Shown here in pieces: positions 12,903 through 25,851 of a stretch of 64,000 bases of DNA. The translations under genes were made by a program, and so were the position numbers. The notes under the pieces are model-generated. The model had not been told where the DNA came from. It worked only from the letters and a program-made list of their open reading frames with translations, and did not search any database. Positions within the stretch are counted from its first letter, which is position 1, and every line of letters starts with the position of its first letter. The DNA comes from Streptomyces alboniger (GTDB lineage: Bacteria; Actinomycetota; Actinomycetes; Streptomycetales; Streptomycetaceae). The stretch lies in contig NZ_CP023695.1 of NCBI RefSeq assembly GCF_008704395.1, positions 3,844,001 to 3,908,000 on the forward strand. Direction: 5' to 3'.

Positions 12903-13214
12903 TCACCAGAGTTCGGAGAAGTTCACCGCGAGGTTCTCGTTGGACTGGTCGAGCGCCGTGAACGCCGAGCCGTTCACCTGAGCGGTGTTGTTCTGGTTCG
13001 AGGCGCCGCTGCCGACGGCCTGCTGCTGCGTAGTGGTCGAGTTGCCGTGGTTGTTACCGCCGACACCGCTGCCGTTCACGGTCGCCACTCCCGCGTTCGA
13101 TCCATTGTTCGCGAAGGCGCCGTTGTCGGCCATCGCCACACCTGAGAAGAGCGCGGCGGCCAGCGGCAGGGCCGCGGCGGCTGCGATGACGCGAGCGGTG
13201 CGAGTGCTTGCCAT
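12903..13214 (-). CDS. Small secreted Asn/Gln/Ser-rich protein of unknown function
   Basis: A 103-residue protein. Residues 1-29 form a Sec signal peptide ending VAMA|DNG. The mature chain of about 74 residues contains no Cys and almost no charge. It is rich in Asn, Gln, Gly, Ser and Thr (NNGSN, VNGSGVGGNN, TTTQQQ, SNQNNTAQVNGS) and ends in FSELW. The ATG at 13214 has GGAGG 7 nt upstream. It is monocistronic, with a strong terminator. The composition recalls amyloid-prone surface proteins, but it lacks the chaplin and rodlin sequence patterns I know, so no family is assigned. Confidence 0.75.
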   Translation of the reverse strand: MASTRTARVIAAAAALPLAAALFSGVAMADNGAFANNGSNAGVATVNGSGVGGNNHGNSTTTQQQAVGSGASNQNNTAQVNGSAFTALDQSNENLAVNFSELW

Positions 13215-13633
13215 GTCTATTCCTCCAGAACGGGAGGTACGCGCCGGCGATGAGCCGGAGGTACCAGGAAAAACGGTTTGTCCCAAGGCGGTTGGCCGAC
13301 CGCTCCCGGGGTGCTGCACGACGTCGCGGCCTCAGAGTTGCCCACCGAATCCCCGGCGAACCACCCCGGAAGCCCCGATTCCCTCGCAAGCGTGAGGACA
13401 TGTCGATAAACATTCCTCGCCTCACGAACACCCGGATCAGCCCCACGCGACGCACTCGCGCCCCGCCTCTCGCCGCGGTCGAACCCGGCCGCCACCGGCG
13501 GCGAAGCGTTTCAGCCGACCGTCATCGACATCCTTGAGAAGGGGGCGCTTTTCCTCTTCAGGCCCTCTCCGTTCACCCCACTCGGGACTCGACCCCCCTT
13601 CCCTTCTTCGAACATGTGTACGAGCATGAAGTC
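13215..13633. other. Divergent intergenic region (419 bp)
   Basis: This region separates the small secreted protein gene from the prim-pol gene. It holds the ribosome binding site of the former and two GGAGGTAC direct repeats (near 13234 and 13258). A relatively AT-rich inverted repeat has CGTGAGG (13391-13397) and CCTCACG (13420-13426) around an ataaacatt core, a possible regulatory site. No convincing -10/-35 pair or small gene was seen. Confidence 0.5.
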
Positions 13634-14512
13634 ATGGCCACCATCGACCGCCATGCCTCCACCCTCGCGCTCGCCCACGCCCTGTCCGCCGCCGAGCGGC
13701 GCCTCGCGGTGATCCCGCTCTCCCGCACCAAGCTCCCCGCCCTGCGCTCCCCCCATCACGACGACCCCGGCACGGCGGGGCCCTGCCACGGCGCGTGCGG
13801 CCGCCTCGGCCACGGGGTGTACGACGCGTCGACCGACCCGCGCCGCGTCCGCGAACTCTTCGCCGCCGCCCCCTGGGCCACCGGTTACGGCATCGCCTGC
13901 GGACTGCCCCCGCACCACCTGATCGGCGTCGACCTGGACACCAAGTCCGGCGCGGACGCCTCCGCGGCCCTGCGCGAACTGGCGCTGCGCCACCTCTTCA
14001 CGATCCCCGAGACCGTCGTCGTGACCACGCCCAGCGGCGGCCGGCACATCTGGCTGGCGGGCCCGCCCGACACCGTGGTCCCCAACTCGGCGGGCCGGCT
14101 CGCCCCCGGCATCGACATCCGGGGCGCGGGCGGCTACCTCGTCGGCCCCGGCTCCCGCACCGAACACGGCGTCTACGGCACGGTCCCCGGCACCGCCCAG
14201 CTACCCCCCGCCCCCTGCCCACCCGCGCTGCTGCGCCTGCTCACGCCCCCACCCCGTGCACGGCACGCGGCGCCCCCGCAGGCTGCGCCCGAACCGGCCC
14301 AACAGGGCCACGGACTCGTACAGTTCGTCCTCGCGGCGCACGAGGGCCAGCGCAACACCCGTCTCTTCTGGGCGGCTTGCCGCGCGTACGAGAACGGCAT
14401 CGGCGAGACCCTGGCCCCCCACCTCACGGACGCCGCCCTCCGCGTGGGCCTCACCCACCGCGAGGCCCGCTCCACCATCGCCTCGGCGGCACGCCTCACG
14501 GGGCACGCGTAA
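13634..14512 (+). CDS. Prim-pol (bifunctional DNA primase/polymerase) domain protein
   Basis: A 292-residue protein. The N-terminal AEP-type prim-pol domain (about 10-205) shows the catalytic pattern: GVDLDTKSG with the metal-binding Asp pair, TPSGGRHIW with the Ser-Gly-x-x-His type motif, and PGIDIRGAGGYLVGPGS. A helical C-terminal tail (about 225-292) resembles those of chromosomal Streptomyces prim-pol proteins. The ATG at 13634 is preferred; a GTG at 13616 is in frame, and neither has a strong ribosome binding site. Its terminator and then the displaced 3' end of tRNA-Ser follow, so before integration this gene was next to the tRNA gene. Confidence 0.82.
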   Translation: MATIDRHASTLALAHALSAAERRLAVIPLSRTKLPALRSPHHDDPGTAGPCHGACGRLGHGVYDASTDPRRVRELFAAAPWATGYGIACGLPPHHLIGVDLDTKSGADASAALRELALRHLFTIPETVVVTTPSGGRHIWLAGPPDTVVPNSAGRLAPGIDIRGAGGYLVGPGSRTEHGVYGTVPGTAQLPPAPCPPALLRLLTPPPRARHAAPPQAAPEPAQQGHGLVQFVLAAHEGQRNTRLFWAACRAYENGIGETLAPHLTDAALRVGLTHREARSTIASAARLTGHA

Positions 14513-14542
14513 GGGGCGCCCGCAATAGCGAACGCCCCTTAC
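14509..14542 (+). terminator. Terminator of the prim-pol gene
   Basis: GTAAGGGGCG and CGCCCCTTAC form a 10-bp stem that includes the TAA stop. It ends 6 bp before the att core at 14549. Confidence 0.8.
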
Positions 14543-14548
14543 AGACTG

Positions 14549-14609
14549 GCGGTGGGTGTGGGATTTGAACCCACGGTGACATCGCTGCCACGACGGTTTT
14601 CAAGACCGT
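14549..14609 (-). repeat. att core 1: displaced 3' half of tRNA-Ser
   Basis: These 61 bases are identical to 24229-24289 and cover the tRNA-Ser(UGA) 3' end from the anticodon arm to the acceptor. The sequence after 14609 diverges, so this is not a functional tRNA. It is the chromosomal fragment left at the far end after integration into the tRNA gene. Confidence 0.9.
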
Positions 14610-14678
14610 CCCGCCGGACACCGGAAGAGCCCCACTGACCTGCCCATTGGCCAACGTGTCAGCCACATGCCACCCCTG

Positions 14679-14698
14679 TGGCCCACGCATGGCCCACA
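14679..14698. other. Right arm-type site of element A
   Basis: TGGCCCACGCATGGCCCACA is two direct TGGCCCAC copies 11 bp apart, starting 73 bp beyond the common att core. Related pairs occur at 16188, 16452 and 24097, so these are probably integrase arm-binding sites. The same bases lie in a CCCCTGTGG/CCACAGGGG hairpin that could also terminate the membrane protein gene at 14738. Confidence 0.7.
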
Positions 14699-14737
14699 GG
14701 GGCTGAAGACGGCCCCGGTACGCAAGCAGCGGGGAAG

Positions 14738-15019
14738 CTAGGGCTCGTCCGCCGACCCCCTCTGGTCAGTGCGCCCTTCCCGGCACAGCCACTGCCCCAA
14801 GGGCACAGCCACAGCCACGACGCCGGCCGCGGTCCCGATCGGCGCAGCAAGCCCAGGCACAGCGAGGACGAGGACCACGACAAGCAGCCCTACGCCCCCA
14901 ATCCCAGCCACGACCGCCCTGCGACGACTCCACGGCTTACGAGGCTGCACGACGGACCGCACCGCAGCCCGTTCGACTCCGCCCGGAGTTGAGGCCCCGG
15001 GCTCAGTCGGTACTGTCAT
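14738..15019 (-). CDS. Small two-helix membrane protein of element A
   Basis: A 93-residue protein. A basic cytoplasmic segment (QPRKPWSRRR) is followed by two adjacent hydrophobic helices (about 41-56 and 60-75, VVAGIGGVGLLVVVLVLAV and PIGTAAGVVAVAVPLGQWL) and a polar tail. The ATG at 15019 has AAAGG about 8 nt upstream. Small membrane proteins of this kind (Spd-like) are common in Streptomyces conjugative elements, where they help spread plasmids between compartments. I infer that only from context, because the sequence match is not specific. Confidence 0.6.
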   Translation of the reverse strand: MTVPTEPGASTPGGVERAAVRSVVQPRKPWSRRRAVVAGIGGVGLLVVVLVLAVPGLAAPIGTAAGVVAVAVPLGQWLCREGRTDQRGSADEP

Positions 15020-15654
15020 TACTGACCTTTCTCGCGCTAGGGAATAGGTCAGGGCGGCTCCCGTGCCAGCGGGGGCCGCCTTTCTTGCGTCGCAGCCACG
15101 CCACCCATGTCGACATGGTGGCAGGCGGTTAACCAACGTCAAATCTGGTTATCCACAAGCCCTGTGGACAAGCGCTCCATTACTGTGCGTAAATGCCTGG
15201 AACTTGTGCACAATCCTGGGGAAGAGCCGGTGGAAAAGCCCACAGAACTGTGGATACATGCGACCTGACCTGCGGCTTTAGTCTCCTTACGCTGTGGATT
15301 GAAAAATCTCCACCAGTCGCACAAAGATTTACTCGCAGTCATTCGGAACTCTTGATTCCACCCTTATATCTATACGCGTAGATACGCAGGGTGAAAATTT
15401 TTCACTTTACCGCCAGACACTGACAAGCGGAATGCCGTCTACCAGTTAGTGAACTCCCGAGGTTCTCCAACACGGCCGGACCAAGGTGACGCCTGACGGT
15501 GGAACGACACGTGCTTCGGAACGGCCTCGGAGAACCGACCCACCTACGACTGGAGGCAGCGTGCCCCTCTCCCACTACGCTGGTGTGCACCACCTGAGAT
15601 CGGAGAGTGCTCCACGGATGGGGCCGAAGTCGACGAAGGCCTACAAGAAGATCC
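15020..15654. other. Non-coding AT-rich patch of element A
   Basis: No convincing gene. From left to right there is a GGCGGC/GCCGCC hairpin followed by TTTCTT (15053-15085). A 14-bp palindrome CCATGTCGACATGG follows (15105-15118), then a cluster of DnaA-box-like sequences (15149-15301). TATCTA/TAGATA arms lie around TACGCG (15367-15384), and a GTGAAAA-t-TTTTCAC palindrome lies at 15391-15405. The base composition is unusually AT-rich for this genome. It could be a replication or control region of the former element. Confidence 0.55.
15149..15301. other. DnaA-box cluster in element A
   Basis: TTATCCACA (15149-15157) and inverted TGTGGACAA (15163-15171) match DnaA boxes exactly. TTGTGCACAA (15204-15213), TGTGGATAC (15249-15257) and TGTGGATTG (15293-15301) are near matches. 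Five sites lie in about 150 bp of AT-rich DNA. Confidence 0.6.
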
Positions 15655-16181
15655 TTCGTCCTGCCGCCTGAGAGTGAGCCCGATGCCTGGGGCGAAGTCC
15701 TCGTCTCCGAGAGCCACGCCAAGGTGGGAGCGGGTTGGACAGACAACGGCAAGTCACACGATGAACGAGGGCTCAAGCACCGTGGGTGCAACGCCGTCCG
15801 CGCGGTACCGATCCCTCCGGTCTACGTGCGGATGGTGCGCTCGCACATCGAGCGCTTCGGCGTGGCTCCTGATGGTCGGCTGACAGGGCAGCCAACGGCG
15901 GACGGATCAGGTCGACCGAGTACTGCGAGATCTGGGAGGAGGCCCGCAAGGCCGTCCTCAGTCCGCAGGAAGTAGAGACCGAGCTGGCTGACGTTCCGTA
16001 CTGCCTTCGCCATGCCGCGATCTCTCTGTGGATCAAACGCGGCGTGGGCCCCGTGGAGGTCGCCTACCGGGCAGGCCACAGCGTTGCAGTGCTCTACCGC
16101 TTCTACGCCAAGATCCTCAAAGGCGGCTCGGCACACGCCAACCGCCTCATTCAGGAGGGGCTGGAGGCTGAGGACGAGTGA
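15655..16181 (+). pseudogene. Tyrosine integrase remnant of element A
   Basis: This is the C-terminal half of a phage-type tyrosine recombinase. The first frame gives PESEPDAWGEVLVSESHAK through RAVPIPPVYVRMVRSHIERFG. After a frameshift near 15895 a second frame gives RSTEYCEIWEEARKAVLS, LRHAAISLWIKRGVG, AGHSVAVLYRFYAK and a stop at 16181. The second segment keeps the LRHAA box, the AGHS box and the nucleophile Tyr of LYRFYAK. The N-terminal core-binding half is missing. It is closely related to the integrase of element B at 20890-21768. It cannot make an active enzyme. Confidence 0.85.
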
Positions 16182-16187
16182 AGAGCC

Positions 16188-16207
16188 TGGCCCACGTATG
16201 GCCCACA
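16188..16207. other. Left arm-type site of element A
   Basis: TGGCCCACGTATGGCCCACA starts 7 nt after the integrase stop and ends 113 bp before att core 2. It differs from the 14679 site at one base. Confidence 0.7.
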
Positions 16208-16263
16208 CGCACTGGTCAGAGGCGGTACACACCCGATTCTGGGTGAGACAGGGTGAACAGAAA

Positions 16264-16292
16264 GGGCGCGATCCCCAACGGGATTCGCGCCC
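16264..16292 (+). terminator. Terminator downstream of the element A integrase
   Basis: GGGCGCG-ATCCC, a CAAC loop and GGGAT-t-CGCGCCC form a 12-bp stem with one bulge. A matching hairpin stands in the same place before att core 3. Confidence 0.75.
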
Positions 16293-16320
16293 TCTGACCT
16301 GCTAGTTCTCTGACCTGCAA

Positions 16321-16377
16321 GCGGTGGGTGTGGGATTTGAACCCACGGTGACATCGCTGCCACGACGGTTTTCAAGA
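16321..16377 (-). repeat. att core 2: internal copy of the tRNA-Ser 3' half
   Basis: These 57 bases are identical to att cores 1 and 3 and end inside the anticodon loop region (CAAGA). It is the junction between the two tandem elements and is not a functional tRNA. Confidence 0.9.
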
Positions 16378-16451
16378 GGGCTGTGGTTCAGGGAACTGCA
16401 CACCATGTGCCCTGGCCTTTCCCCTCCCTGACTGCGTCTACGGGCCGATAG

Positions 16452-16471
16452 TGGTCCACACCTGGTCCACC
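16452..16471. other. Right arm-type site of element B
   Basis: TGGTCCACACCTGGTCCACC is two direct TGGTCCAC copies, starting 74 bp beyond the common core. This is the same geometry as the site at 14679. Confidence 0.65.
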
Positions 16472-16582
16472 GGGCAGCGGCCACGGACAAGATGTCGCTG
16501 GCTACCTCCCGGGCCTGCCGAACTCGCGTACGCACCTCTACCGGTCTGAGATCCTGGAGTCCGATCGAGAGGGGCGGCAGGC

Positions 16583-17116
16583 ATGGAGTGGAAAACCCAC
16601 GGGGAGCGGCAGGTTTACACCAACAAGTGGGTGAATCTCTGTCTGGTCGATGTTCAGCAGCCTGACGGGCGCAGGTGGGAGTATCACGTCGTTCGCCTGC
16701 GTCACCTGGCCGTGGCGGCCGTGGTGAACGCTCGCCAAGAGGTCCTGATGATGTGGCGGCACCGGTTCATCACGGACTCTTGGGCCTGGGAGCTGCCCAT
16801 GGGCCTGGTCGAAGAGGGTGAGAGCCCTGAAGAAGCGGCGGCTCGCGAGGTACTGGAAGAAACGGGCTGGCGCCCCGGCCCCATCAAGCCCTTGATCTAC
16901 GCCGAGCCGGCCAACGGGATCACCGACTCACAGCATCACGTCTTCCGTGTGGAGGGAGCCGTCTACGACGGGCCGCCCACCGAGAAGAACGAGTCGGACC
17001 GCATCGAGTGGATTCCCCTCTCAGAGGTGCGGGGGATGATCGACCGCCGTGAGATCCGAAGCAGTGGCTCGCTCGTCGGCCTGCTGTACCTGCTCATGGA
17101 TGAAGGGGTCCGCTGA
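16583..17116 (+). CDS. NUDIX hydrolase of element B (Pif-like context)
   Basis: A 177-residue protein. The Nudix box fits G-x5-E-x7-R-E-x2-E-E-x-G at about residues 75-97 (GLVEEGESPEE..REVLEETG). The upstream fold WEYHVVRLRHLAVAAVV is that of ADP-ribose pyrophosphatase-like Nudix enzymes, which cleave nucleoside diphosphates linked to another group. Its position near an att end beside an XRE regulator is typical of actinomycete integrative elements. In pSAM2 a Nudix protein (Pif) limits redundant transfer; the same role here is an inference. The ATG at 16583 has GAGGGG upstream. The 3' end overlaps the converging regulator gene by 23 bp. Confidence 0.85.
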   Translation: MEWKTHGERQVYTNKWVNLCLVDVQQPDGRRWEYHVVRLRHLAVAAVVNARQEVLMMWRHRFITDSWAWELPMGLVEEGESPEEAAAREVLEETGWRPGPIKPLIYAEPANGITDSQHHVFRVEGAVYDGPPTEKNESDRIEWIPLSEVRGMIDRREIRSSGSLVGLLYLLMDEGVR

Positions 17117-18440
17117 CCGGTGGGAGAAGCTCCCGTAGCCGCGCTTCGAAAGCGAGGGCTACGGGTTCCTTCCTGTGCGGGGCCAGCTGGTCGTAGAACT
17201 CCCTGAGGTGGCTCGTCACTCGCTCTGAGGCGACTGCGGAGGCGGGCTCCAGCGCTTGTGTGGCGGTGTGGCACGCCTGGTCGAGCTTGCCCTGGTCGAG
17301 CTGTGTACGGGCAAGCCAGAACGAGTGAAATGCCCGACCGCGTTGATTGGTGTGGGCCTCACGCCGCAGAGCGTCCGCGATCAGGGGTTCAGCGGTCGCG
17401 GCCTCGCCCAGTCGTCCGTGTGCGATGCCCGTGTCCACGATCAGCTTCGTCTCATCGAAGTACGTCACCCATGACGGGTCCGGGTCGCTCGTCCGGATCT
17501 GCTCGAAACGGCGGTGCGCCTCCTTCATCGCCCGATGCGTGGACTCCCGGTTGCCAAGCGTCGCGTGGGCAAAGGCTTCTCGCATCGACAGCATGGAGAG
17601 GACGCGGGGGGTGGTGTCGAGCGCTGAGCGGGCCTGGTCCTGAGCGGCTGCCACGAGGGCCAGAGAGTCGGCAGGCTTGTCCTGGTACGTGCCCTGCAAG
17701 CTCATGCACGCCAAGACATTGGCCATGAACTGCCGGTCGTCGATCTCCTTGGCCAGTTGCAGGGCTTCGGTGAAGTACAGGCGAGCTTGGTCGTACTGAC
17801 GCGCGTCGAAGTAGGTCCATCCGGTGAGACGTGCCAGCTCGGCGGCGATGCCGTACAGACCGCTCTGGATCGACGGACTCCGGATCTCCTTCAGGAGGCC
17901 GACCACATAGCGGAGTTGCCCGACGATGGCCGGTCGTAGTGCTTCTCCGCCGTGCTGGTCGTCTCGTCGCCAGTAGTCCTCGATGGAGGAGCGAAACGCC
18001 GCAAGGGTCGCCGTGTTGAGGCTTGTACGGGTGGCCAAGACCAGGATGCTGTCCACATCGGCACCGGGCAGCGACATGGCGTTTTGCTGGCCCGGTCCCT
18101 GCCCAGGCGTTTGGGGCAACGCTCTCTCGGTGGTCGCCAGGGCCTGAGGCGTCTCCCAGGCCCGGCGGGTGAGTCCGAGCATGTGTCCGGGGATGCGCAA
18201 GCCATCCGCGATGCGCTCGACGACATCCATGTGGAGCAACTGACGGCGCCCCGCGATGACTTCGCCGACACGGCTTGGCGTGAGGTCGCACCGCCTGGCG
18301 ATCATCGAGGGGTAGATGCCTGCCCTGGTCTTGACCAGTCGAAAGACTCGGGCGAAGTCTCGCGCTCGACACGCGTCGATCATCTCGGGATCGGTGAGCA
18401 GCCGGGCAGGCAGTTCCTGCGGCCGGTCGGCGTCGGGCAT
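17094..18440 (-). CDS. XRE-family regulator with TPR-like C-terminal domain
   Basis: A 448-residue protein. The N-terminal helix-turn-helix (about 25-75) contains FARVFRLVKTRAGIYPSMIARRCDLTPSRVGEVIAGRR. The rest is helical repeats resembling TPR units (RQYDQARLYFTEALQLAKEI, LARTQLDQGKLDQACHTATQALE). Such proteins often respond to a small molecule or peptide and control mobile-element genes. The ATG at 18440 is chosen because GGGAGC lies upstream and the residues before it are unlike the family. It is divergent from the small-protein operon, with a perfect palindrome at 18501-18519 between them that is probably its own operator. Confidence 0.85.
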   Translation of the reverse strand: MPDADRPQELPARLLTDPEMIDACRARDFARVFRLVKTRAGIYPSMIARRCDLTPSRVGEVIAGRRQLLHMDVVERIADGLRIPGHMLGLTRRAWETPQALATTERALPQTPGQGPGQQNAMSLPGADVDSILVLATRTSLNTATLAAFRSSIEDYWRRDDQHGGEALRPAIVGQLRYVVGLLKEIRSPSIQSGLYGIAAELARLTGWTYFDARQYDQARLYFTEALQLAKEIDDRQFMANVLACMSLQGTYQDKPADSLALVAAAQDQARSALDTTPRVLSMLSMREAFAHATLGNRESTHRAMKEAHRRFEQIRTSDPDPSWVTYFDETKLIVDTGIAHGRLGEAATAEPLIADALRREAHTNQRGRAFHSFWLARTQLDQGKLDQACHTATQALEPASAVASERVTSHLREFYDQLAPHRKEPVALAFEARLRELLPPVSGPLHP

Positions 18441-18500
18441 TGGGCAAGCTCCCACACTGCGAGGGCTACGCAACGTCGTTGGGTCTCTACGTGCCGCGAT

Positions 18501-18519
18501 ATTACCCAAGTTGGGTAAT
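18501..18519. promoter_or_regulatory. Operator between the XRE regulator and the small-protein operon
   Basis: ATTACCCAAGTTGGGTAAT is a perfect palindrome with 9-bp arms around a central G. It is placed in the divergent promoter region, 48 bp before the ATG at 18567 and 61 bp before the regulator's ATG. Confidence 0.8.
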
Positions 18520-18566
18520 CAGCCTGGCCTTTTAGCCGCCACCTCGCCTTCGCGATGCTTCTCTCC

Positions 18567-18797
18567 ATGGCGAAGAACCAGCAGACCAGACCGGGCATCG
18601 GTGAACTGGCGAAGGACAACGCCAAAGGACGCGTCGGCGTTGTCATGGCGATGATCGGCGGTCGTGTGCAGATACGGCCGGTCGGTGGTGGCAAGGAGTG
18701 GGATGCCATGCCGGACGACGTGGCAACCCCCAGCGCACGCGAGGAACTGAGCGTCCGCCTGGCCGTCAGGGCTGGCAGTGGCTGGGTGAAGCGGTGA
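18567..18797 (+). CDS. Small conserved-type protein of element B
   Basis: A 76-residue soluble protein. A basic N-terminus (MAKNQQTRPGIGELAKD) is followed by short beta-like segments (RVGVVMAMIGGRVQIRPVGGGKEWDA). I do not recognise the family, although proteins of this size and start are frequent beside XRE regulators in Streptomyces elements. It has no clear Shine-Dalgarno sequence. The stop overlaps the next start (GTGA), so the two are translated together. Expression is probably controlled by the operator 48 bp upstream. Confidence 0.65.
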   Translation: MAKNQQTRPGIGELAKDNAKGRVGVVMAMIGGRVQIRPVGGGKEWDAMPDDVATPSAREELSVRLAVRAGSGWVKR

Positions 18798-18895
18798 TCC
18801 GCACAATCGGCCGCTACGCGGGGATTCTGTTCATCGTCATGATCAGCGGGTCGTGCGGCCTGGTGATCGGTATGGCTCTCAGCATGAGCCAGTAG
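18794..18895 (+). CDS. 33-residue single-pass membrane peptide
   Basis: A very small gene starting with GTG at 18794, which overlaps the stop of the preceding gene (GTGA). The peptide is a short basic start (VIRTIGRYAG) and one long hydrophobic helix (ILFIVMISGSCGLVIGMAL) ending SMSQ. Coupling to the upstream gene and a plausible transmembrane helix support it. Its function is unknown; it could be a holin-like or inhibitory membrane peptide. Confidence 0.5.
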   Translation: MIRTIGRYAGILFIVMISGSCGLVIGMALSMSQ

Positions 18896-18982
18896 ACCGG
18901 CCGCCCCGAACGGGTGCATTACTCGGGCTCCCCCCGCCCGTTCGGGCCGGCCATCCATGCACGGCAACACGAGGAGATTCGC

Positions 18983-19426
18983 ATGACAGCAACGGCGAAC
19001 GACCTGAGGTCCGGCCGCGCGGTGGCTGGTGAGGAGCTGTTCGAAAGCCTCGCTCACTTTGTGGCTGTTCACAACGGGCAGTCACCCGAGCGTGCGAGGA
19101 AGATCGCGGATCAGGCGGTGGCCTTCCTGGTCACTGCGGCCAACGCCACGATCCCCATGGTTCCGTCGGACGACGTGGACTTCGGCCTGCACGCGCTCAT
19201 CCTGCAAAGGAAGGAGTACGCCGACCTGTGCCAGCGGTACGCGGGTCGCTTCCTGCACCACAACCCGAAGCCGGGAGGCGGAGGCCGCGACGCGGAAAAG
19301 GTCGCTGCCTCGGCACGTGCCATGAAGGCCGGCGGTTTCGTGGTCTTCGATGAACTGTGGACCGTGGACGGCGCGAACCTCGCGCAGTGCGACTCGGACT
19401 GCGGCCGACCGTACGGTCAGGCATAG
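18983..19426 (+). CDS. Glycine-rich-domain-like small protein (HH-x-P motif)
   Basis: A 147-residue protein. The ATG at 18983 has GAGGAG at 18971-18976. The middle segment VDFGLHALILQRKEYADLC followed by YAGRFLHHNPKP resembles the core of glycine-rich domain proteins (a His helix, then G-x-F-x-H-H-x-P). The similarity is by eye only. The C-terminal part contains CDSDCGRPY, a possible metal site. It lies between the small membrane peptide and the kinase-like gene on the same strand and is probably co-expressed with them. Its biochemical role is unknown. Confidence 0.65.
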   Translation: MTATANDLRSGRAVAGEELFESLAHFVAVHNGQSPERARKIADQAVAFLVTAANATIPMVPSDDVDFGLHALILQRKEYADLCQRYAGRFLHHNPKPGGGGRDAEKVAASARAMKAGGFVVFDELWTVDGANLAQCDSDCGRPYGQA

Positions 19427-19495
19427 CTCACGGCAGTAGGACGCGGCTGGCGGTAACTCACCGCTGGCCGCGTCCACTTGGAAGGAGACAAGACG

Positions 19496-20341
19496 TTGTC
19501 CGGGTCACCCCCTGAACTCCCGATCGTGGTGCTCGACGCACTCATGCCGACGGCTCAACGTCTCGTGGCGGATCGCCGTGGCTCCATGGTGTGGGAAGTT
19601 GAGAGCTGCCGGGGCCGTTACGCGGTGAAGGTCGGGCACCCGATCGAGGCGACGGCCGATTGGCCTGCCCAGCCCTGGACCGCGCTCGCGCCCGCGCGTG
19701 AAGGGGCCGTGATGTATCGGCTGGGCCGCGCTGACTTCGCATACGGCGAGTGGGAGCACGGAACGTGGAATCTCCAGCCGTGGCATGAAGGACCGGATTT
19801 GCATCGGCTTTGGGAGCCGTGTCGTAGATCCGACTCCTCTGCGCCACCGGACTCCAGCGTGGCACTCGGTTGCGTGATGGCGCTGGCCGACCTGCACGCC
19901 AAGGGGTGGGCCCACGGTGACGTGCAACCCGCTCACTTCATCATCGGGCCGGACGGGACGCAGCTCATCGATCTCGCCTTGGCTCGGGGTGGTGGACAGA
20001 TGCCCAAGGGATACGACTTCCCGTTCCGCGGTTGCCTGGTCCACTACGAAGCGCCCGAGATCGCGCGCAGTGTGCTGGCGACAGGGGAAGCCGAACCCAC
20101 CCAGGAAGCCGACGTATACGCGCTCGGTGCCTCGCTGCTCATCTCCGCCACGGGCTGGCGGGTGATGGAGTACCCGGACGATGCTCCTCGCTCAGTGCAG
20201 AGAGAAGCCGTGGCGAAGGGTCGGCGTCGACCTGTGAAGGTGCCTGGCGAACTGGGCGGGCTGATCGACTCGATGCTCAGCCAAGCGCCAGAGGACCGGC
20301 CCACCATCTTCGAGGTGGGAAAGGCTCTGAGCTGCCTCTGA
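19496..20341 (+). CDS. Protein-kinase-like protein of element B
   Basis: A 281-residue protein with the layout of a small protein kinase. The ATP-binding Lys is K45 in RYAVKVG. The catalytic loop is HGDVQPAHFII (H140, D142), and D159 in LIDLA stands where DFG would be. YEAPE resembles the APE motif, and EADVYALGASL is the F-helix motif. The catalytic-loop Asn is replaced by His147 and DFG by DLA, so activity is doubtful or altered. A TTG start at 19496 is chosen for the AAGGAG 8 nt upstream. A 13-bp hairpin terminator follows. The target is unknown. Confidence 0.75.
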   Translation: MSGSPPELPIVVLDALMPTAQRLVADRRGSMVWEVESCRGRYAVKVGHPIEATADWPAQPWTALAPAREGAVMYRLGRADFAYGEWEHGTWNLQPWHEGPDLHRLWEPCRRSDSSAPPDSSVALGCVMALADLHAKGWAHGDVQPAHFIIGPDGTQLIDLALARGGGQMPKGYDFPFRGCLVHYEAPEIARSVLATGEAEPTQEADVYALGASLLISATGWRVMEYPDDAPRSVQREAVAKGRRRPVKVPGELGGLIDSMLSQAPEDRPTIFEVGKALSCL

Positions 20342-20389
20342 AGCGCCGGTGCACCTGGCGCTGCTCACCCGCTACGACGACGTAGCAAT

Positions 20390-20435
20390 GACCGGACCAC
20401 CCCTCAGCCTGGACAGCATTCCGGGTGGTCCGGTC
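20390..20435 (+). terminator. Strong hairpin after the kinase-like gene
   Basis: GACCGGACCACCC and GGGTGGTCCGGTC form a perfect 13-bp stem 48 nt past the stop at 20341. A second hairpin (CCCCGGT/ACCGGGG, 20455-20477) follows. Confidence 0.8.
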
Positions 20436-20792
20436 GCGGAAGCCCTGATCAGGACCCCGGTGCCGATGGTACCGGGGCGGTCGGCGTGCTCGAATGCGGG
20501 TACGACTCCAACCCCGGTGCGCAGTACGCGATTCGGGGAGGATCAACGATGCGGTGGGACGGACTTGGGCCCCGTTCTGACCTCAGCCACCGAAAGTCAG
20601 CCACGACGGCGGGACGGACGAACGAGCACCCGTCACGTATGTCTCCCGCAACCCCGTGCCGGTCTCAGCCACGCTGCTTCCATACGTCACGGCCCGCGCC
20701 CGTGGCCCACTTGGCCGTTGCCCACGCGCCTCGGCACCGGGGGCTCTTCGTGGTGTGGCTTCAGGGGCCACATGACCTAGGGCCGGTGGGCG
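20436..20792. other. Eroded intergenic DNA before the element B integrase
   Basis: A second small hairpin (20455-20477) is present. No open frame here resembles a known protein. In related elements this stretch would carry the N-terminal part of the integrase or an excisionase, so it is probably deletion or decay debris. Confidence 0.45.
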
Positions 20793-21768
20793 GTGAGTGG
20801 CGTGGTGGAGCTGGCGTATTTCGGCTTGGCCCTGGCGCTCGGAGTGGTCGGGTTGCTACCTGGTCACACTGCCCGCCTTGACTGGATCGGCCGGAAGTCC
20901 GTGGACATCTCGTCCCTGAACACGCCGACGGTCGTGCGGCCTGCCCTGGACGCGCTTGCCCACAGGATGGACGGGACCGCTGCGGCGGACAACACGGTGA
21001 ACCGCAAGGTGCCCGTGTTCAGCAACTGCCTGCGGTACGCGGTCGAGCTGGACCGCCTGCCCTCGCTTCCCCTGGCCAAGGTGGACTGGACAACACCCGA
21101 GAATGACGACGAGATCGACTTCCGATACATCCCCGGCCCGGCCCTGGCCCGCGAGCTGATCGACCCCGTGGGCGAGCAGAACGACCATGGTCGGCACCTC
21201 AAGGCGTTCTTTGGGTGCCTCTACTACGCGGCCACCCGTCCAGGTGAAGCCGTGGGTCTCCGCGAGTCGGACTTCACTCTGCCTGAGGAAGGCTGGGGCC
21301 GAGTCATCCTGTCGTCCAGCTCCCCTCGCGTCGACTCTGGCTGGACCGACTCCGGGGAGTCCTACGACTCCCGAGGCCTCAAGAAGCGCGCCCGAAAGGC
21401 CACCCGCGAGGTACCGATCCCGCCGGTCCTGGTCCGTCTGATCCGCGACCACATCGCGGAGTTCAGCACGGCCGAGGACGGCCGACTCTTCCGCGCGGCC
21501 CGTGGCGGCGGCCTCCTGAGCAAGGAGTACGGCGACGTTTGGAAGGCTGCTCGTCGGGCCGTCCTCACCAAGCAGGAGGTCAAGACGCCCCTGATGGACT
21601 CCGCGCCGCGTGCGTCTCCCTCTGGCTGGAGTCCGGGGTCTCCCCGGCCGAAGTCGCCCGCCGCGCGCCGGCCACAGCATCGCCGTGCTGCTCCGCTTCT
21701 ACGCCAAGGCGATCCACGGGCACCAGGCCCGGCCGTCCGCAGAACCCGACTATCAGGCGACTACGTAA
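20793..21768 (+). pseudogene. Frameshifted tyrosine integrase of element B
   Basis: Recognisable integrase sequence runs from about 20890 (DISSLNTPTVVRPALDALAHR) through YYAATRPGEAVGLRESD (with the first catalytic Arg) and TREVPIPPVLVRLIRDHI to about 21596. After a frame change, LRAACVSLWLESGVSPAEVARRA continues. After another, AGHSIAVLLRFYAKAIHG leads to a TAA at 21766-21768. The LRH box has lost its His. At least two frameshifts separate the catalytic residues, and the N-terminus before 20890 is replaced by a hydrophobic unrelated segment. The enzyme is dead, so element B cannot excise by itself. Confidence 0.85.
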
Positions 21769-21829
21769 AGATCAATTCACTCGATCGCGCTCGACATTCA
21801 GACCAAAAGGGCAGATGGCCGAGAGTCGG

Positions 21830-21859
21830 TTGTCGTTCTGGTTTCTAGGCCGGTACCTT
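21830..21859 (+). promoter_or_regulatory. Possible promoter of the cargo operon
   Basis: TTGTCG (21830-21835), an 18-bp spacer and TACCTT (21854-21859) place the start point close to the ATG at 21867. This fits a leaderless message and the lack of a Shine-Dalgarno sequence there. Confidence 0.4.
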
Positions 21860-21866
21860 GTCCAGT

Positions 21867-22673
21867 ATGAGCGAGCGCGAAGTGTACCCCAACTCACCAC
21901 TGGCGCTGGTCGCCATCGAGGTGCGACACCCCACTGCGGCGCCCCTCAGCAGCACCCAAGAAGCTGAGATCAAGAGGGGTGTCGCTTCGGTGACCCCTCT
22001 GTCGAAGCCTGCCCACGTTCAAACAGTCACCATCACAGCCGGATTGAACCTGGGCAAACCCGATGTAAGCACGCAGACATCACCTCGTTTCATGAGCCGC
22101 GACAAAGCACTCTCCGTCACGTTTCGCGACGACGCTCTCGTAGTCGAGACAACTCGGTATGAACGCTACGAAGTCCTGCGCAAGCTGGTCACCTTGGCTT
22201 TGAAGGTACGGCAGAATGTGGCGCCAGTCGACGGAATCGAGCGCGTCGGAATTCGCTACATCAACGAGGTGCGAGTTCCATATGTCGAAACACCGACAAA
22301 TTGGCAAGACTGGGTGCGGCCTGCCCTATCGGGGCCGACCACGCTAAAAACACCGACTGGGCTCGATCTAAATTCATGGCAGGGCGTAACTCTGTTTGGT
22401 GACCCAACCCAGGAGGCATCACTCGTACGACATGGCCTACACGAAGGCTACGCCGTAAACCCGGGCGGCGACCTCCGCCGAAAGACACCCCCACCCGGCC
22501 CTTTCTTCCTCATCGACATCGATAGCTTCTGGCTCTCCACAGAAGAGACGCCTGCGGCGACTCCAGAGAACACCCTCACCTGTCTAGATAGGCTTAATAC
22601 GTCCGCGAGAGAACTATTCGAATCCGTAATTACCGATCGCCTTCGAAACGAGGTTCTCCGCAATGGAATCTAA
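21867..22673 (+). CDS. TIGR04255-like protein, first gene of the cargo operon
   Basis: A 268-residue protein beginning MSEREVYPNSPLALVAIEVRHP, then a mixed beta/alpha body with RYINEVRVPY and FFLIDIDSFW. The start pattern and the late IDID strand resemble the sporadically distributed TIGR04255 family, whose members occur on mobile DNA and whose function is not established. The match is by eye. No Shine-Dalgarno sequence is seen, so it may be leaderless. G+C content and codon use are clearly lower than in neighbouring host genes (many aaa, aat, cta and gta codons). It overlaps the next gene by 11 bp. Confidence 0.7.
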   Translation: MSEREVYPNSPLALVAIEVRHPTAAPLSSTQEAEIKRGVASVTPLSKPAHVQTVTITAGLNLGKPDVSTQTSPRFMSRDKALSVTFRDDALVVETTRYERYEVLRKLVTLALKVRQNVAPVDGIERVGIRYINEVRVPYVETPTNWQDWVRPALSGPTTLKTPTGLDLNSWQGVTLFGDPTQEASLVRHGLHEGYAVNPGGDLRRKTPPPGPFFLIDIDSFWLSTEETPAATPENTLTCLDRLNTSARELFESVITDRLRNEVLRNGI

Positions 22674-23328
22674 TTCGCACTCGCAGACGAAATCCAGCAC
22701 CATGGCTTCCACCGAACTCGTTGAACTCCAGCCCGAGGTCGCCTCGCCGCCTACCCGACCGATCGAGAGTATCGAGGTCGGAGACCTTGCAGACCGAACC
22801 GGCTCCCTCCGCTCCCGCACACGGTTCACCCACGAGGACGCAGCCGAGCTCCACCGCGATGTCCTGTTCACCGAGTGGCAGCAACTGACCAGCACAAGAG
22901 GCAAGCTGGCGCCAGCAGCGATGCTGGAGCAGATCGCGGAACTAGGCTTCTCCTGGCGCGACGTAGCCCGCCTCCTCAAGGTCAGCGTGCCGGCAGTTCA
23001 GAAGTGGCGCCGAGGCGAGGGCGTTACCGGCCCAAATCGTCTCAACATCGCCAGCCTGCTGGCAATGTGCCAGATGCTCGCTGAGCACTATGCCGTCCAA
23101 GAAGTGGCCTCATGGTTCGAGATGCCCCTTACGTCCAAGTGCCCCGTCACTCCTATGGACCTCTACGCAACCGAGCGACAAGATTTGATCTTCGACTACG
23201 CAAGTAGCCACGCCGACGTAGAGCAAGTACTCAATGACTATGACCCGGACTGGCGCGAGCGGTACGCTTCGACCTTCGAGGTTTACGAGGCCGCCGATGG
23301 CGATCTCGCTATCCGTCCGAAGGAATAG
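22663..23328 (+). CDS. HTH protein with Xre/MbcA-antitoxin-like C-terminal part
   Basis: A 221-residue protein. A disordered acidic N-terminus (1-60) is followed by a helix-turn-helix at about 86-112 (LGFSWRDVARLLKVSVPAVQ then KWRRG). The helical C-terminal region contains VASWFEMPL, PVTPMDLYATERQDLIFDYA and VEQVLNDYDPDW. This layout resembles Xre-MbcA-ParS antitoxins, in which an HTH is joined to a toxin-binding domain. The resemblance is weak and no RES-type toxin is obvious nearby. The ATG at 22663 overlaps the preceding gene and has GAGG 9 nt upstream. It is probably the regulator or neutralising partner of the flanking proteins. Confidence 0.7.
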   Translation: MESNSHSQTKSSTMASTELVELQPEVASPPTRPIESIEVGDLADRTGSLRSRTRFTHEDAAELHRDVLFTEWQQLTSTRGKLAPAAMLEQIAELGFSWRDVARLLKVSVPAVQKWRRGEGVTGPNRLNIASLLAMCQMLAEHYAVQEVASWFEMPLTSKCPVTPMDLYATERQDLIFDYASSHADVEQVLNDYDPDWRERYASTFEVYEAADGDLAIRPKE

Positions 23329-23330
23329 CG

Positions 23331-24041
23331 TTGGCGTACCAGCTCGAAGCACCGCAAGAGTGGGATCACCTCTACCAAGCACGCGGCGATGATGTCAATC
23401 TCTACCGCCCTTTCTTGACTGGCGACGTTTTCCGCGGAGTCCCGACAGTCGATTCAGCCGGCGAAAAGAAAAGGGACGTCATCCTTGTTCAGCACCCATG
23501 CAGTCTGCGGATAGCTGGCGTGCACTTGGTGCCTAAACTGCTCGTAGCGAAGGTCCAGCAGTTTCCGGTAGTCGAGCGCGAAGACTGGACCGGACATGTG
23601 CGAATAATGCCCCTGCCGGAGCTTCGCCCCGAGGAGAAGAATGCCAAAAAGCGTCACTTCTCCGCCCGCTTCGAGGACCTCTTCATCGTGACACCTGAGC
23701 AGCTATCGCAAGGGGTGAGGCACGCCTGCATGAGCCCCCTAGGCATCAACACGTTAATGCAGCGATGGGTGTTCAACTCCACCCGAGTCACCGTTCCGAC
23801 AACAACCTTCCACGAACGCAATGCCGCGGTGTTCGAGGAAGTAGACCTCATCGAAGAATGGTGCGAGGAGCGGGCAGAGACCATGGACCCGGTAGATGCT
23901 TCCGCCGAATGCGCGGCCTGGCTTCGGCAACCGAGCGTGGAGGGTGGTGTGTCCCGCCAACTCGCCCTACGCGAAGCCCAGCAGCGCAGTTCGATTCGAC
24001 GTCAAATGCGCACGTACCTCAAAGCCACACCCCCTGGTTGA
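23331..24041 (+). CDS. Unknown third protein of the cargo operon
   Basis: A 236-residue protein that I cannot assign. It starts with TTG at 23331, only 2 nt after the previous stop, with AAGGA 7 nt upstream. Visible features are YRPFLTGDVFRGVP and VILVQHPCSLR (a possible His-Cys motif), LLVAKVQQFP, a basic ELRPEEKNAKKRHFSARF segment, and a helical C-terminus rich in Arg and Glu (LALREAQQRSSIRRQMR). It does not show the spacing of conserved residues expected for a RES-domain toxin. The tight spacing to the HTH gene suggests the two proteins act together, possibly as effector and controller. Confidence 0.65.
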   Translation: MAYQLEAPQEWDHLYQARGDDVNLYRPFLTGDVFRGVPTVDSAGEKKRDVILVQHPCSLRIAGVHLVPKLLVAKVQQFPVVEREDWTGHVRIMPLPELRPEEKNAKKRHFSARFEDLFIVTPEQLSQGVRHACMSPLGINTLMQRWVFNSTRVTVPTTTFHERNAAVFEEVDLIEEWCEERAETMDPVDASAECAAWLRQPSVEGGVSRQLALREAQQRSSIRRQMRTYLKATPPG

Positions 24042-24096
24042 TGCACCATCAGTGGAGGAGACCCATGGCTGACCATCCCTCTGGCCGGACACGGGG

Positions 24097-24116
24097 TGGC
24101 CCACGCCTGGTCCACA
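24097..24116. other. Left arm-type site of element B
   Basis: TGGCCCACGCCTGGTCCACA ends 112 bp before att core 3. This is the same distance as the 16188 site keeps from core 2 (113 bp). The cargo operon sits between this site and the dead integrase. Confidence 0.7.
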
Positions 24117-24173
24117 CACCATGATCCAAAGTGGCACACGGGCGGGTCAGGGTTGAGACAGGACCGCATGACG

Positions 24174-24202
24174 AAGGGGTGCCCCTGGTCGGGACACCCC
24201 TT
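24174..24202 (+). terminator. Terminator before att core 3
   Basis: AAGGGGTGCCC and GGGACACCCCTT form a stem of about 11 pairs with one mismatch. It is the counterpart of the hairpin at 16264. Confidence 0.75.
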
Positions 24203-24228
24203 CTAATCAGCACCTCGGCTGACCTGCT

Positions 24229-24289
24229 GCGGTGGGTGTGGGATTTGAACCCACGGTGACATCGCTGCCACGACGGTTTTCAAGACCGT
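24229..24289 (-). repeat. att core 3 inside the intact tRNA-Ser
   Basis: The 61-bp segment is identical to att core 1; its first 57 bases are also identical to core 2. It contains the 3' half of the functional tRNA gene, as expected when an integrative element restores the tRNA on insertion. Confidence 0.9.
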
Positions 24290-24316
24290 TCCCTTAGGCC
24301 GCTCGGGCAACCCACC
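24230..24316 (-). tRNA. tRNA-Ser (anticodon UGA)
   Basis: An 87-nt class II tRNA. The acceptor GGTGGGT pairs with ACCCACC, the discriminator is G and CCA is not encoded. The D arm is CCCGAGCGGCC. The anticodon arm ACGGT-CTTGAAA-ACCGT carries the UGA anticodon, a long variable arm follows, and the T arm is GTGGGTTCAAATCCCAC. Its 3' half is the integration target of the two elements to its left. Confidence 0.95.
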
Positions 24317-24390
24317 CCGCGCCGTCCACCGGGAAACCGGTACGGCGCGGGGACAAGACTAGCGGGTTGGTCCGGCGGCGGAGCAGGGGA

Positions 24391-25851
24391 TCAGCTGTCG
24401 CCCTTGCGCTGGCCCAGGGTCACGTCGACCGTGTGCTCCTCGCCGTCGCGCTCGTAGGTGATCTTGACGGTGTCGCCGGGCTTGTGCGTCCAGATCTGGC
24501 CGATCAGGGTCGGGCCGCTGTCGATCACCGTGTCGTCCAGCTTCGTGATGACGTCGCCGGGCTTGAGGCCCGCCTTGTCCGCGGGGCCGTTCGGAGTGAC
24601 CGGCTCCGAACCGCCCACGCCCTCCCGGGAGATCGTCGCGCCGTCCGAGGAGTCCTGCTGGAGCGAGACCGAGGCGCCGATCACGGGGTAGACCGGCTTG
24701 CCGGTCTTGATCAGCTGCTGGGCGACGTACTTCGCCTGGTTCACCGGGATCGCGAAGCCGAGGCCGATGGAGCCCGACTGGCCTGAGCCGCCGAGGCCGC
24801 CGCTGTCGGCGGGCTTGATCGCGGAGTTGATGCCGATGACCGCGCCGCGCCCGTCCAGGAGCGGGCCGCCGGAGTTGCCGGGGTTGATGGACGCGTCGGT
24901 CTGGAGGGCGCTCATGTACGAGCTCTTGCCGCTCTGCCCGCCGTCGCTGGAGGTCACCGGGCGGTTCTTGGCGCTGATGATGCCCGTCGTGACGGTGTTC
25001 GAGAGGCCGAAGGGGGCGCCGATCGCGATCGTCGAGTCGCCGACGGCCACGCGGTCGGAGTTGCCGAGGGGGAGCGGCTTCAGGTCGCCCGGGGGGTTCT
25101 TGAGCTTCAGGACGGCCACGTCGTAGCCCTCGGCACGGCCGATGACCTCGGCGGCGTACTTCTTGCCGTTGGAGAACGTCACCTGGAGCTTTCCGCCCTC
25201 GGCCGCCGACGCCACCACGTGGTTGTTGGTGAGGATGTGGCCCTGCTTGTCGTAGACGAAGCCGGTGCCCGTGCCGCCCTCGCCGCTGCCGCTCTGCGCC
25301 TCGATGGTGACCACGCTCGGCAGCGCGTCGTTCGCGATCTTGGCGACCGAGCCCGGTTCGCGCTTCAGGTCGGCGGGCGTGTCGGCCGCGGAGACCGTGG
25401 TCGAGCCGGTGTCGTTGTCGTTCCGCTCGGCTGCCCAGTAGCCGACGCCGCCGCCGACACCGCCCGCGATCAGGGCGGCCGCGAGCATCCCGGCAACAAG
25501 ACCGCCGCGCCGACGGCCGGGCTTCGGGTCCTGCGGCTGGTACGAGGCGCCCCAGCCGGAGCCGGCGCCCCCACCGGAGGCGTACGACGGCACGGCGGGC
25601 GGCGGCGGAGGCGGCCAAGCGCCCGAGCCGGTGGCGGTCGCGGTGGTGGTGGGGGCATCAGGACCGGCGCCAGGACCGGCGCCAAGGGCGGCGCCCGTGC
25701 CCGCACCGGCACCCGTACCGGCGGAAGCCTGCTCGGAAGCGGCAGAAGGGACGGAGTGCGCGGCGTCGGCGGAAACAGCGGGAGCGTCCACCGGCACGGG
25801 AGGTGCGGACGGGGCCTGGGGTACCTCGTTGCCCTCGTTCTCGGTGCTCAC
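24391..25851 (-). CDS. HtrA/DegP-like membrane serine protease with PDZ domain
   Basis: A 486-residue protein. The Pro/Ala/Gly-rich cytoplasmic N-terminus (1-120) precedes one transmembrane helix (GGLVAGMLAAALIAGGVGGG). A trypsin-like domain with His211 (NNHVV), Asp244 (YDVAVLKL) and Ser327 (NPGNSGGPLL) is followed by a C-terminal PDZ domain (PADKAGLKPGDVITKLDD). It probably degrades or refolds damaged exported proteins at the outer face of the membrane. A GTG at 25851 is preferred: GAGGAG lies upstream, while the longer frame to 25914 adds an unlikely Arg-rich stretch. It lies next to tRNA-Ser on the same strand. Confidence 0.92.
   Translation of the reverse strand: MSTENEGNEVPQAPSAPPVPVDAPAVSADAAHSVPSAASEQASAGTGAGAGTGAALGAGPGAGPDAPTTTATATGSGAWPPPPPPAVPSYASGGGAGSGWGASYQPQDPKPGRRRGGLVAGMLAAALIAGGVGGGVGYWAAERNDNDTGSTTVSAADTPADLKREPGSVAKIANDALPSVVTIEAQSGSGEGGTGTGFVYDKQGHILTNNHVVASAAEGGKLQVTFSNGKKYAAEVIGRAEGYDVAVLKLKNPPGDLKPLPLGNSDRVAVGDSTIAIGAPFGLSNTVTTGIISAKNRPVTSSDGGQSGKSSYMSALQTDASINPGNSGGPLLDGRGAVIGINSAIKPADSGGLGGSGQSGSIGLGFAIPVNQAKYVAQQLIKTGKPVYPVIGASVSLQQDSSDGATISREGVGGSEPVTPNGPADKAGLKPGDVITKLDDTVIDSGPTLIGQIWTHKPGDTVKITYERDGEEHTVDVTLGQRKGDS

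What the first reader, a model, noticed from the sequence alone, without database searches (positions are those of the whole stretch)
21867..24041. Three-gene low-G+C cargo operon: candidate undescribed defence or toxin-antitoxin-like system
Seen: three tightly coupled genes (11-bp overlap, then a 2-nt gap) of 268, 221 and 236 residues. Codon use differs from the host. They are inserted between a dead integrase (stop 21768) and its arm site (24097), whereas in the sister element that gap is only 7 nt. The first resembles TIGR04255 proteins, the second has an HTH plus an Xre/MbcA-antitoxin-like C-terminus, and the third is unknown with a QHPCS motif. Known: TIGR04255 proteins are sporadic and of unknown function; Xre-MbcA proteins neutralise toxins. 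Inferred: the trio is a selected cargo, for example phage defence or post-segregational control.
Basis: partly seen in the sequence, partly recalled or inferred. Interest (0 to 1): 0.8.

Follow-up and report, generated by a model that had tools for sequence, protein, structure and literature searches.

The report
Three-gene toxin-antitoxin-like cassette, undescribed
Three unnamed genes on a decayed mobile element in a Streptomyces chromosome form a conserved cassette that looks like a new kind of three-part toxin-antitoxin system, and close and distant versions of it occur in very different bacteria.

Summary
The three genes are real, and they belong together. Gene 1 is a TIGR04255 protein. 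Gene 2 is predicted to fold like the MbcA/NatR (Xre/ParS) antitoxins. Gene 3 has no family match, but its predicted fold is MazF/CcdB. In gene-2-seeded loci, gene 1 lies upstream in 35 of 37 and gene 3 downstream in 33 of 37. Seeded with gene 3, 6 of 396 genomes are positive and all 6 have TIGR04255 upstream, one as a contig-edge fragment. Repeats spaced 12 bp precede gene 1 at 37 of 40 loci; the window's motif is unique in its 7.96-Mb genome. Related trios are under purifying selection; in four organisms, probably one lineage, the trio abuts hsdM-hsdS-hsdR.

A distant form (TIGR04255, gene-2-like HTH, third gene with a QxCD-type motif) occurs in Actinomycetota, Cyanobacteriota and Pseudomonadota. 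Other TIGR04255 genes seem to head operons with other effectors (HEPN-like, HicA-like, zeta).

Best reading: an autoregulated tripartite toxin-antitoxin-type module, carried as addiction or phage-defence cargo. Toxicity, neutralisation and defence are untested; MazF's catalytic residues are not clearly kept. No paper in the held library contains the string TIGR04255.

The parts
21828..21866 (+). Promoter/operator region: GGTTGTCGTTCTGGTTTC (21828-21845), then GGTA. Half-sites [AG]GT[TA] lie at -39, -27 and -15 from the gene 1 start codon.
   Evidence: 37 of 40 trio upstream regions have the spaced half-sites, against 0.6% and 0.2% of random 80-mers. The 18-bp pattern occurs once in the window (up to 2 mismatches) and once in the 7.96-Mb genome (up to 1 mismatch).
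21867..22673 (+). Gene 1, TIGR04255 family protein, 268 aa; putative third component (sensor or stabiliser)
   Evidence: NCBIfam TIGR04255 132.2 bits, cut-off 30; gene-1 homologue upstream of gene 2 in 35 of 37 loci
22663..23328 (+). Gene 2, HTH plus MbcA/NatR-like C-terminal domain, 221 aa (or 208 aa from a later start); putative antitoxin and autorepressor. The part that matches MbcA is residues 81-183 (22903-23211).
23331..24041 (+). Gene 3, 236 aa, MazF/CcdB-fold domain (residues 26-154; 23406-23792) plus a C-terminal helical part; invariant HPC motif (residues 55-57, 23493-23501); putative toxin or effector
20793..21768 (+). Apparently frameshifted tyrosine integrase of the host element (remnant)
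   Evidence: ORF list and sequence by eye; no homologue search done
24219..24316 (-). tRNA-Ser(TGA) and attachment-site repeat bordering the trio
   Evidence: ARAGORN; repeat 97-98% identical to 16310-16377 and 14549-14612
16310..16377 (.). Second attachment-site repeat, the likely other end of the 7.9-kb element that carries the trio
   Evidence: blastn self-comparison of 13001-25000

Best explanation
The trio is an autoregulated three-component toxin-antitoxin-type module. Gene 2 binds the 12-bp-spaced repeats at the promoter through its HTH and represses the operon. Its MbcA-like C-terminal domain holds gene 3, a MazF/CcdB-fold effector with a family-specific HPC site, inactive. Gene 1 (TIGR04255) is the third partner, which stabilises the complex or senses the trigger. 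When the trigger appears (phage product or loss of the element), gene 2 is released or degraded and gene 3 acts on RNA or another core target. The module travels as cargo of integrative elements, plasmids and R-M islands. Shown here: conserved gene order, predicted folds of genes 2 and 3, conserved promoter repeats, purifying selection in related trios, mobile and R-M context. Inferred: binding of gene 2 to the repeats, neutralisation, toxicity, the role of gene 1, and defence.
Against: No activity has been measured. Gene 3 has no PemK/MazF sequence match (0 of 47); the profile comparison is 3.1% with 27 PF02452 sequences and 0.05% with the nine best of them. The catalytic Arg/Thr pair of MazF (recalled) is not clearly kept: R in 27 and K in 7 of 47 at the aligned column, no conserved Ser/Thr on the next strand. 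Foldseek gives gene 2 no match at E<=0.001. MbcA-type antitoxins normally pair with RES toxins, not MazF folds. A shared fold proves no function. PADLOC has no match for any of the three. The four hsd-linked trios are 87-98% identical to each other, so they may be one association event, and the R-M query panel was drawn from trio loci, which favours them. Some losses of gene 3 are in draft MAGs and may be assembly errors. TIGR04255 stands alone at 4 of 34 places examined, all in one genus. dN/dS was not computed for the window's own copy.
Confidence: 0.6

Rival explanations
1. Gene 3 is not a toxin but a MazF-fold nucleic-acid-binding or sensing subunit, and the effector of a new defence complex is gene 1 or the whole assembly.
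For: MazF catalytic residues are not clearly kept, while a different set (G31, D32, HPC, W86, L95, R130, G138, Q144, E170) is invariant. Gene 1 is the constant member of several operon types with different third genes.
Against: Third genes vary while TIGR04255 stays, and some variants resemble toxins (zeta as annotated, HEPN-like and HicA-like by weak matches), which points to the third gene as effector. Gene 3 is the part most often lost from gene-2 loci.
Confidence: 0.22
2. The trio is a maintenance (addiction) module only: it stabilises the mobile elements and has no role against phages. (This is a sub-case of the best explanation, so the odds overlap.)
For: Found on an integrative element, on mobilizable plasmids beside a mobF gene and in viral contigs; the distant form on a plasmid with a relaxase gene and on a phage-like plasmid.
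Against: Abuts hsdM-hsdS-hsdR in four organisms, a placement typical of defence cargo.
Confidence: 0.35
3. The trio is a control or accessory module of the neighbouring restriction-modification systems.
For: Directly upstream (10-20 nt) of hsdM in L015, L018, L019 and L025; other R-M-like genes near L009, L026 and L039.
Against: HsdM-, HsdR- or HsdS-like hits occur in only 5 of 39 trio loci, and four of these five may be one event. R-M genes beside the window copy were not systematically sought; none stood out.
Confidence: 0.08
4. Ordinary housekeeping or metabolic genes that happen to sit on a mobile element.
For: None found.
Against: Sporadic: gene 2 in 5 of 295 same-genus genomes, own included; conserved order; no metabolic family match.
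Confidence: 0.03

Closest known systems
RES-Xre toxin-antitoxin systems (MbcTA, NatRT, Xre-RES of P. putida)
   Same: Gene 2 aligns with MbcA, NatR and the antitoxin of 8gug over HTH plus C-terminal domain and with 8 PF09722-type proteins by profile (95.3%). The P. putida operon is repressed by the antitoxin-toxin complex at promoter repeats (PMC12204516, passages read).
   Different: No RES toxin in the operon; the third gene has a MazF/CcdB predicted fold; an extra TIGR04255 gene comes first; the promoter shows direct repeats of 12 bp, whereas the P. putida operator is an imperfect inverted repeat.
MazF/PemK and CcdB toxins
   Different: No PF02452 match, about 80 extra C-terminal residues, mostly helical, an invariant HPC in place of clear Arg/Thr catalysis, and no MazE-type antitoxin.
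Toxin-antitoxin-chaperone systems, including CmdTAC
   Same: Three-gene layout in which a third protein could sense a phage trigger (CmdC senses capsid and the antitoxin is then degraded; PMC11618068, abstract and outline read).
   Different: TIGR04255 showed no profile similarity to SecB (0.14%, only 3 SecB-type sequences), and it is the first gene, whereas the chaperone gene is last in TAC systems (recalled).
HipBST tripartite toxin-antitoxin system
   Same: Three proteins (search listing with the opening of the abstract, PMC10627512), one of them an HTH regulator (recalled).
   Different: Kinase toxin; no TIGR04255, no MazF fold (recalled).

Membership tests
TIGR04255 family (gene 1) | Score over the curated NCBIfam cut-off | tested here: met
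   132.2 bits, cut-off 30, residues 7-262
Xre/MbcA/ParS antitoxin (gene 2) | Sequence match to PF09722 over cut-off | tested here: not met
   No PF09722 match for gene 2 at E<=1; 3 of 61 relatives match NCBIfam Xre_ParS_antitoxin at E<=0.01
Xre/MbcA/ParS antitoxin (gene 2) | Two-domain fold: HTH plus toxin-binding domain | tested here: met
Xre/MbcA/ParS antitoxin (gene 2) | RES-domain toxin encoded next door | tested here: not met
   Gene 3 has no Pfam family match and matches MazF by fold
Xre/MbcA/ParS antitoxin (gene 2) | Neutralises a toxin and represses its own promoter | not testable with these tools
   Conserved promoter repeats are consistent; binding not shown
MazF/PemK toxin (gene 3) | PF02452 sequence match | tested here: not met
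   0 of 47 members at E<=0.1
MazF/PemK toxin (gene 3) | MazF/CcdB (SH3-like) fold | tested here: met
MazF/PemK toxin (gene 3) | Catalytic Arg and Ser/Thr (recalled) | tested here: inconclusive
   Arg column R 27 and K 7 of 47, no conserved Ser/Thr at residues 72-75; the register rests on a weak profile alignment
Toxin-antitoxin-chaperone (TAC) | SecB-like chaperone | tested here: inconclusive
   Gene 1 profile against 3 SecB-type sequences 0.14%; gene 1 structure not predicted
Known anti-phage systems (PADLOC-DB 2.0.0) | Model match for any component | tested here: not met
   0 families at E<=1 for the three proteins

The most novel reading that the evidence does not exclude
TIGR04255 is the constant, trigger-sensing component of a large, undescribed class of tripartite immunity/addiction operons (TIGR04255, adaptor/antitoxin, swappable effector), seen here in four phyla (Actinomycetota, Cyanobacteriota, Pseudomonadota, Deinococcota). 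Effectors include a MazF-fold branch with a new Cys-centred site (HPC or QxCD), HEPN-like, HicA-like and zeta toxins, and a further unknown type.
Probability: 0.35. Interest if true: 0.87.

Novelty: new variant of a known kind. Interest (0 to 1): 0.72.

Why it matters
TIGR04255 is a 'sporadic' family without a function in its NCBIfam entry name, and no paper in the held library mentions it by that string. Placing it as first gene of conserved toxin-antitoxin-like operons gives it a testable role. The operon links an MbcA-type antitoxin to a MazF-fold partner, a pairing I know of in no described system (recalled). It also names invariant residues (H55, P56, C57 and others) and an exact promoter target for experiments, and it points to related cassettes in other phyla.

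Tried and rejected
Gene 3 found nothing in NCBIfam, Pfam, PADLOC and PHROGs. Profiles of genes 3 and 1 found no meaningful PDB sequence and gene 2 only chance-level rows; the folds came only from the models. Rejected for now: gene 1 as a SecB-type chaperone, for lack of similarity (only 3 sequences, so not excluded). Tried: 12-bp periodicity at promoters of the QxCD cassettes, 3 of 14 over threshold against 68 of 3000 controls, and by the same measure only 3 of 34 in the HPC set although its mean at lag 12 is the highest, so the half-site count is the evidence used. Tried: the Klebsiella cassette in E. coli genomes, no match; genes 2 and 3 in phage records, no match. Gene 1 structure was not predicted (both jobs used). 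The paper searches listed nothing that fits. The regex was written after seeing the motif, missed several third genes, and also hit 2 reverse-strand and 2 upstream control ORFs; the HMM test is firmer, but it in turn misses L077, L081 and L082. I first suspected that L041 holds a diverged gene 3 (a protein comes from a contig of the same length); tblastn showed none. In the fold comparison of gene 2, human HNF-1 chains score nearly as high as MbcA but over the HTH part only. No PADLOC control was run for the flanking ORFs.

Dropped before counts: L001-L004 from the alignments (own copies and copies of L009/L011); from A3 also P0017, L013, L017, L021, L030; from A5 also L013, L017, L021; from A4 also L017, L021, L044. 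G420 (not fetched) and G518:C23 (contig end) from the layout count. 43 of 183 flanking ORFs (the shortest) were not scanned; ORFs over 700 aa were set aside before that, 10 of them scanned. In the MazF set 27 of 30 loci were used, in the Xre set 8 of 27, among the second genes 12 of 13 (L091 had stops in the stretch I cut). The 39 trio loci hold one organism twice (L042, L084) and near-duplicates (L016, L017), and so do the 40 upstream regions (near-duplicates).

Full report
WHAT IS THERE. The window lies in a Streptomyces-type chromosome (7.96 Mb, one contig; the genus is inferred from relatives). Three genes on the + strand, 21867-22673, 22663-23328 and 23331-24041, are coupled by an 11-bp overlap and a 2-nt gap; a later start of gene 2, as in a database version of 208 aa, would remove the overlap. 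Their G+C is about 59%, against 59-68% in the rest of the element and 70-74% in the chromosome on both sides. They sit between an apparently frameshifted integrase and a tRNA-Ser gene. Three copies of the tRNA 3' part (14549-14612, 16310-16377, 24219-24292) point to two tandem integrations.

CONSERVATION. A search of genome contigs seeded with gene 2 gave 37 loci, mostly from actinobacterial families. A gene-1 homologue lies upstream in 35 of 37 (in L028 only a C-terminal remnant) and a gene-3 match downstream in 33 of 37 (broken in L021 and L030), on the same strand and adjacent. Seeding with gene 3 instead: 6 of 396 genomes of the phylum are positive. All 6 have TIGR04255 upstream: 5 over the cut-off at 661-708 nt, and G518 as a sub-cut-off fragment at a contig edge, 962 nt away. 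Only 31 of 396 genomes have TIGR04255 at all. Two of two viral contigs seeded with gene 3 also have all three genes. Gene 2 is sporadic: 5 of 295 same-genus genomes, own included. dN/dS over seven pairs of other loci and three genes is 0.040-0.146 in 20 of 21 values; the exception, 0.324, has dS of only 0.031. The window's copy was not in that test.

PROMOTER. In 37 of 40 upstream regions the 80 bases before gene 1 hold half-sites [AG]GTT...[AG]GT[TA] about 12 bp apart, mostly at -39/-27/-15 or -38/-26/-14 from the start codon. Random 80-mers give 0.6% (same loci) and 0.2% (40 random regions); 500 shuffles of the same sequences give a mean of 0.6 and a maximum of 4 of 40. The exceptions are L005, L006 and L030. 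The window copy, GGTTGTCGTTCTGGTTTC, is the only match (up to 1 mismatch) in its genome. A TAGNNT-like hexamer close before the start codon is found in 14 of 40, not in the window; a leaderless transcript is a guess.

CONTEXT. In L015, L018, L019 and L025 (a Propionicimonas MAG, Kocuria, an unnamed Micrococcales MAG and Galactobacter) gene 3 ends 10-20 nt before hsdM-hsdS-hsdR (Pfam). These four trios are 87-98% identical in protein, so they may be one event that spread. R-M-like or helicase genes lie near L009, L026 and L039. The query panel hit 0 of 40 random 20-kb regions, but it was drawn from trio loci, which favours them. Two Rhodococcus plasmids carry the trio beside mobF; in one of them gene 3 is split, with insertion sequences next to the stub. 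Of 38 gene-2-seeded loci 7 lack an intact gene 3; every examined locus seeded with a third gene has a gene-2-like gene (in G518 weakly, E 1e-4). That is the pattern of a toxin that cannot live without its antitoxin, with the caution that several are draft MAGs.

THE WIDER FAMILY. One search lists 36 TIGR04255 rows in 31 of 396 genomes; I examined what follows at 34 (not G420, not fetched; not G518:C23, contig end). Six have the HPC gene 3. Thirteen have a third gene with a QxCD-type motif: ten by the regex, and L077, L079 and L089 by eye, of which L079 and L089 also match by HMM; in L069, L078 and L081 the second gene shows no HTH by eye. The rest, sorted by eye: HEPN-like 2, HicA-like 1, one (L086) with a second gene like the HicA type, five with another set of unknown genes, one with HTH only, one other, and four solitary in one genus. 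The HEPN and HicA labels rest on weak matches below cut-off (E 0.045-0.048) and on PADLOC HEPN_IX (E 0.0014). The QxCD third genes are relatives of gene 3 (hhalign 83.8-85.5%, E 9e-7 to 5.6e-6) and their second genes are relatives of gene 2 (97.5%, E 8.3e-12). A QxCD HMM found 10 hits among 2083 ORFs of the TIGR04255 loci, all third genes, 4 of them not used in training, and none among 4129 ORFs of 40 random regions. Seeding plasmids with one QxCD protein gave 6 records, and 6 of 6 have TIGR04255 annotated upstream as first gene of the cassette: Chroococcidiopsis, Sphingomonas, two Rhizobium, Sinorhizobium and Kocuria. The same layout is in a Klebsiella plasmid some 3 kb from a tape measure gene and in an Acinetobacter phage-labelled contig (the second phage-labelled record was not opened). 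A Vibrio plasmid has TIGR04255, a 179-aa gene and an annotated zeta toxin; a Thermus plasmid has TIGR04255, about 190 aa and a HEPN-like gene by eye.

MECHANISM AND LIMITS. The most likely reading is an autoregulated tripartite toxin-antitoxin-type module with gene 3 as effector, gene 2 as antitoxin and repressor, and gene 1 as third partner. Precedents for a third protein that senses a phage are the TAC systems such as CmdTAC (PMC11618068, abstract and outline read). For autoregulation by an MbcA-type antitoxin complex there is Xre-RES of P. putida (PMC12204516, passages read). Nothing here shows toxicity, neutralisation or defence.

NOVELTY. No paper in the held library contains TIGR04255, and searches for RES-Xre, tripartite and related terms listed none that fits (listings and openings of abstracts only). 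Subscription papers and preprints are not covered. I file it as a new variant of a known kind (tripartite toxin-antitoxin-type systems).

Noticed in passing
L066, L093-L096: TIGR04255 followed by a ~170-220-aa gene (WDG/GY and EW motifs, by eye) and in most a ~150-aa gene with a DPAHA-like motif: another unknown operon type.
   Followed up: partly
L067, L088, L160: TIGR04255 plus a 170-190-aa gene plus a small HEPN-like gene, in Actinomycetota and on a Thermus plasmid.
   Followed up: partly
L163: TIGR04255, a 179-aa gene and an annotated zeta toxin on a Vibrio plasmid record.
   Followed up: no
L068, L070, L071, L080: Solitary TIGR04255 genes in one genus, three of them close relatives of gene 1, without genes 2 and 3 nearby.
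   Followed up: partly
L048 (NZ_CP130482.1): Gene 3 split: a stub after gene 2 with insertion sequences next to it, and a further gene-3 piece about 20 kb away.
   Followed up: no
L015, L018, L019, L025: Against L018, HsdM is 81-97% and HsdR 94-95% identical while HsdS differs in two of the three, so the trio-hsdMSR block seems to move as a unit with changing specificity.
   Followed up: partly
L020 10000-16558: Two large proteins (1036 and 942 aa) downstream of the trio without any Pfam match at E<=1e-5.
   Followed up: no
L041 after 5300: An integrase-like C-terminal stretch (by eye) lies downstream of genes 1-2 in a contig that has no gene 3.
   Followed up: no
window 14549-16377: A second, shorter tandem element at the same tRNA-Ser with what look like integrase fragments.
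   Followed up: no
L072, L076, L082 upstream of TIGR04255: 12-bp direct repeats of other sequence next to the start codon, perhaps operators of the distant cassettes (3 of 14, suggestive only).
   Followed up: partly
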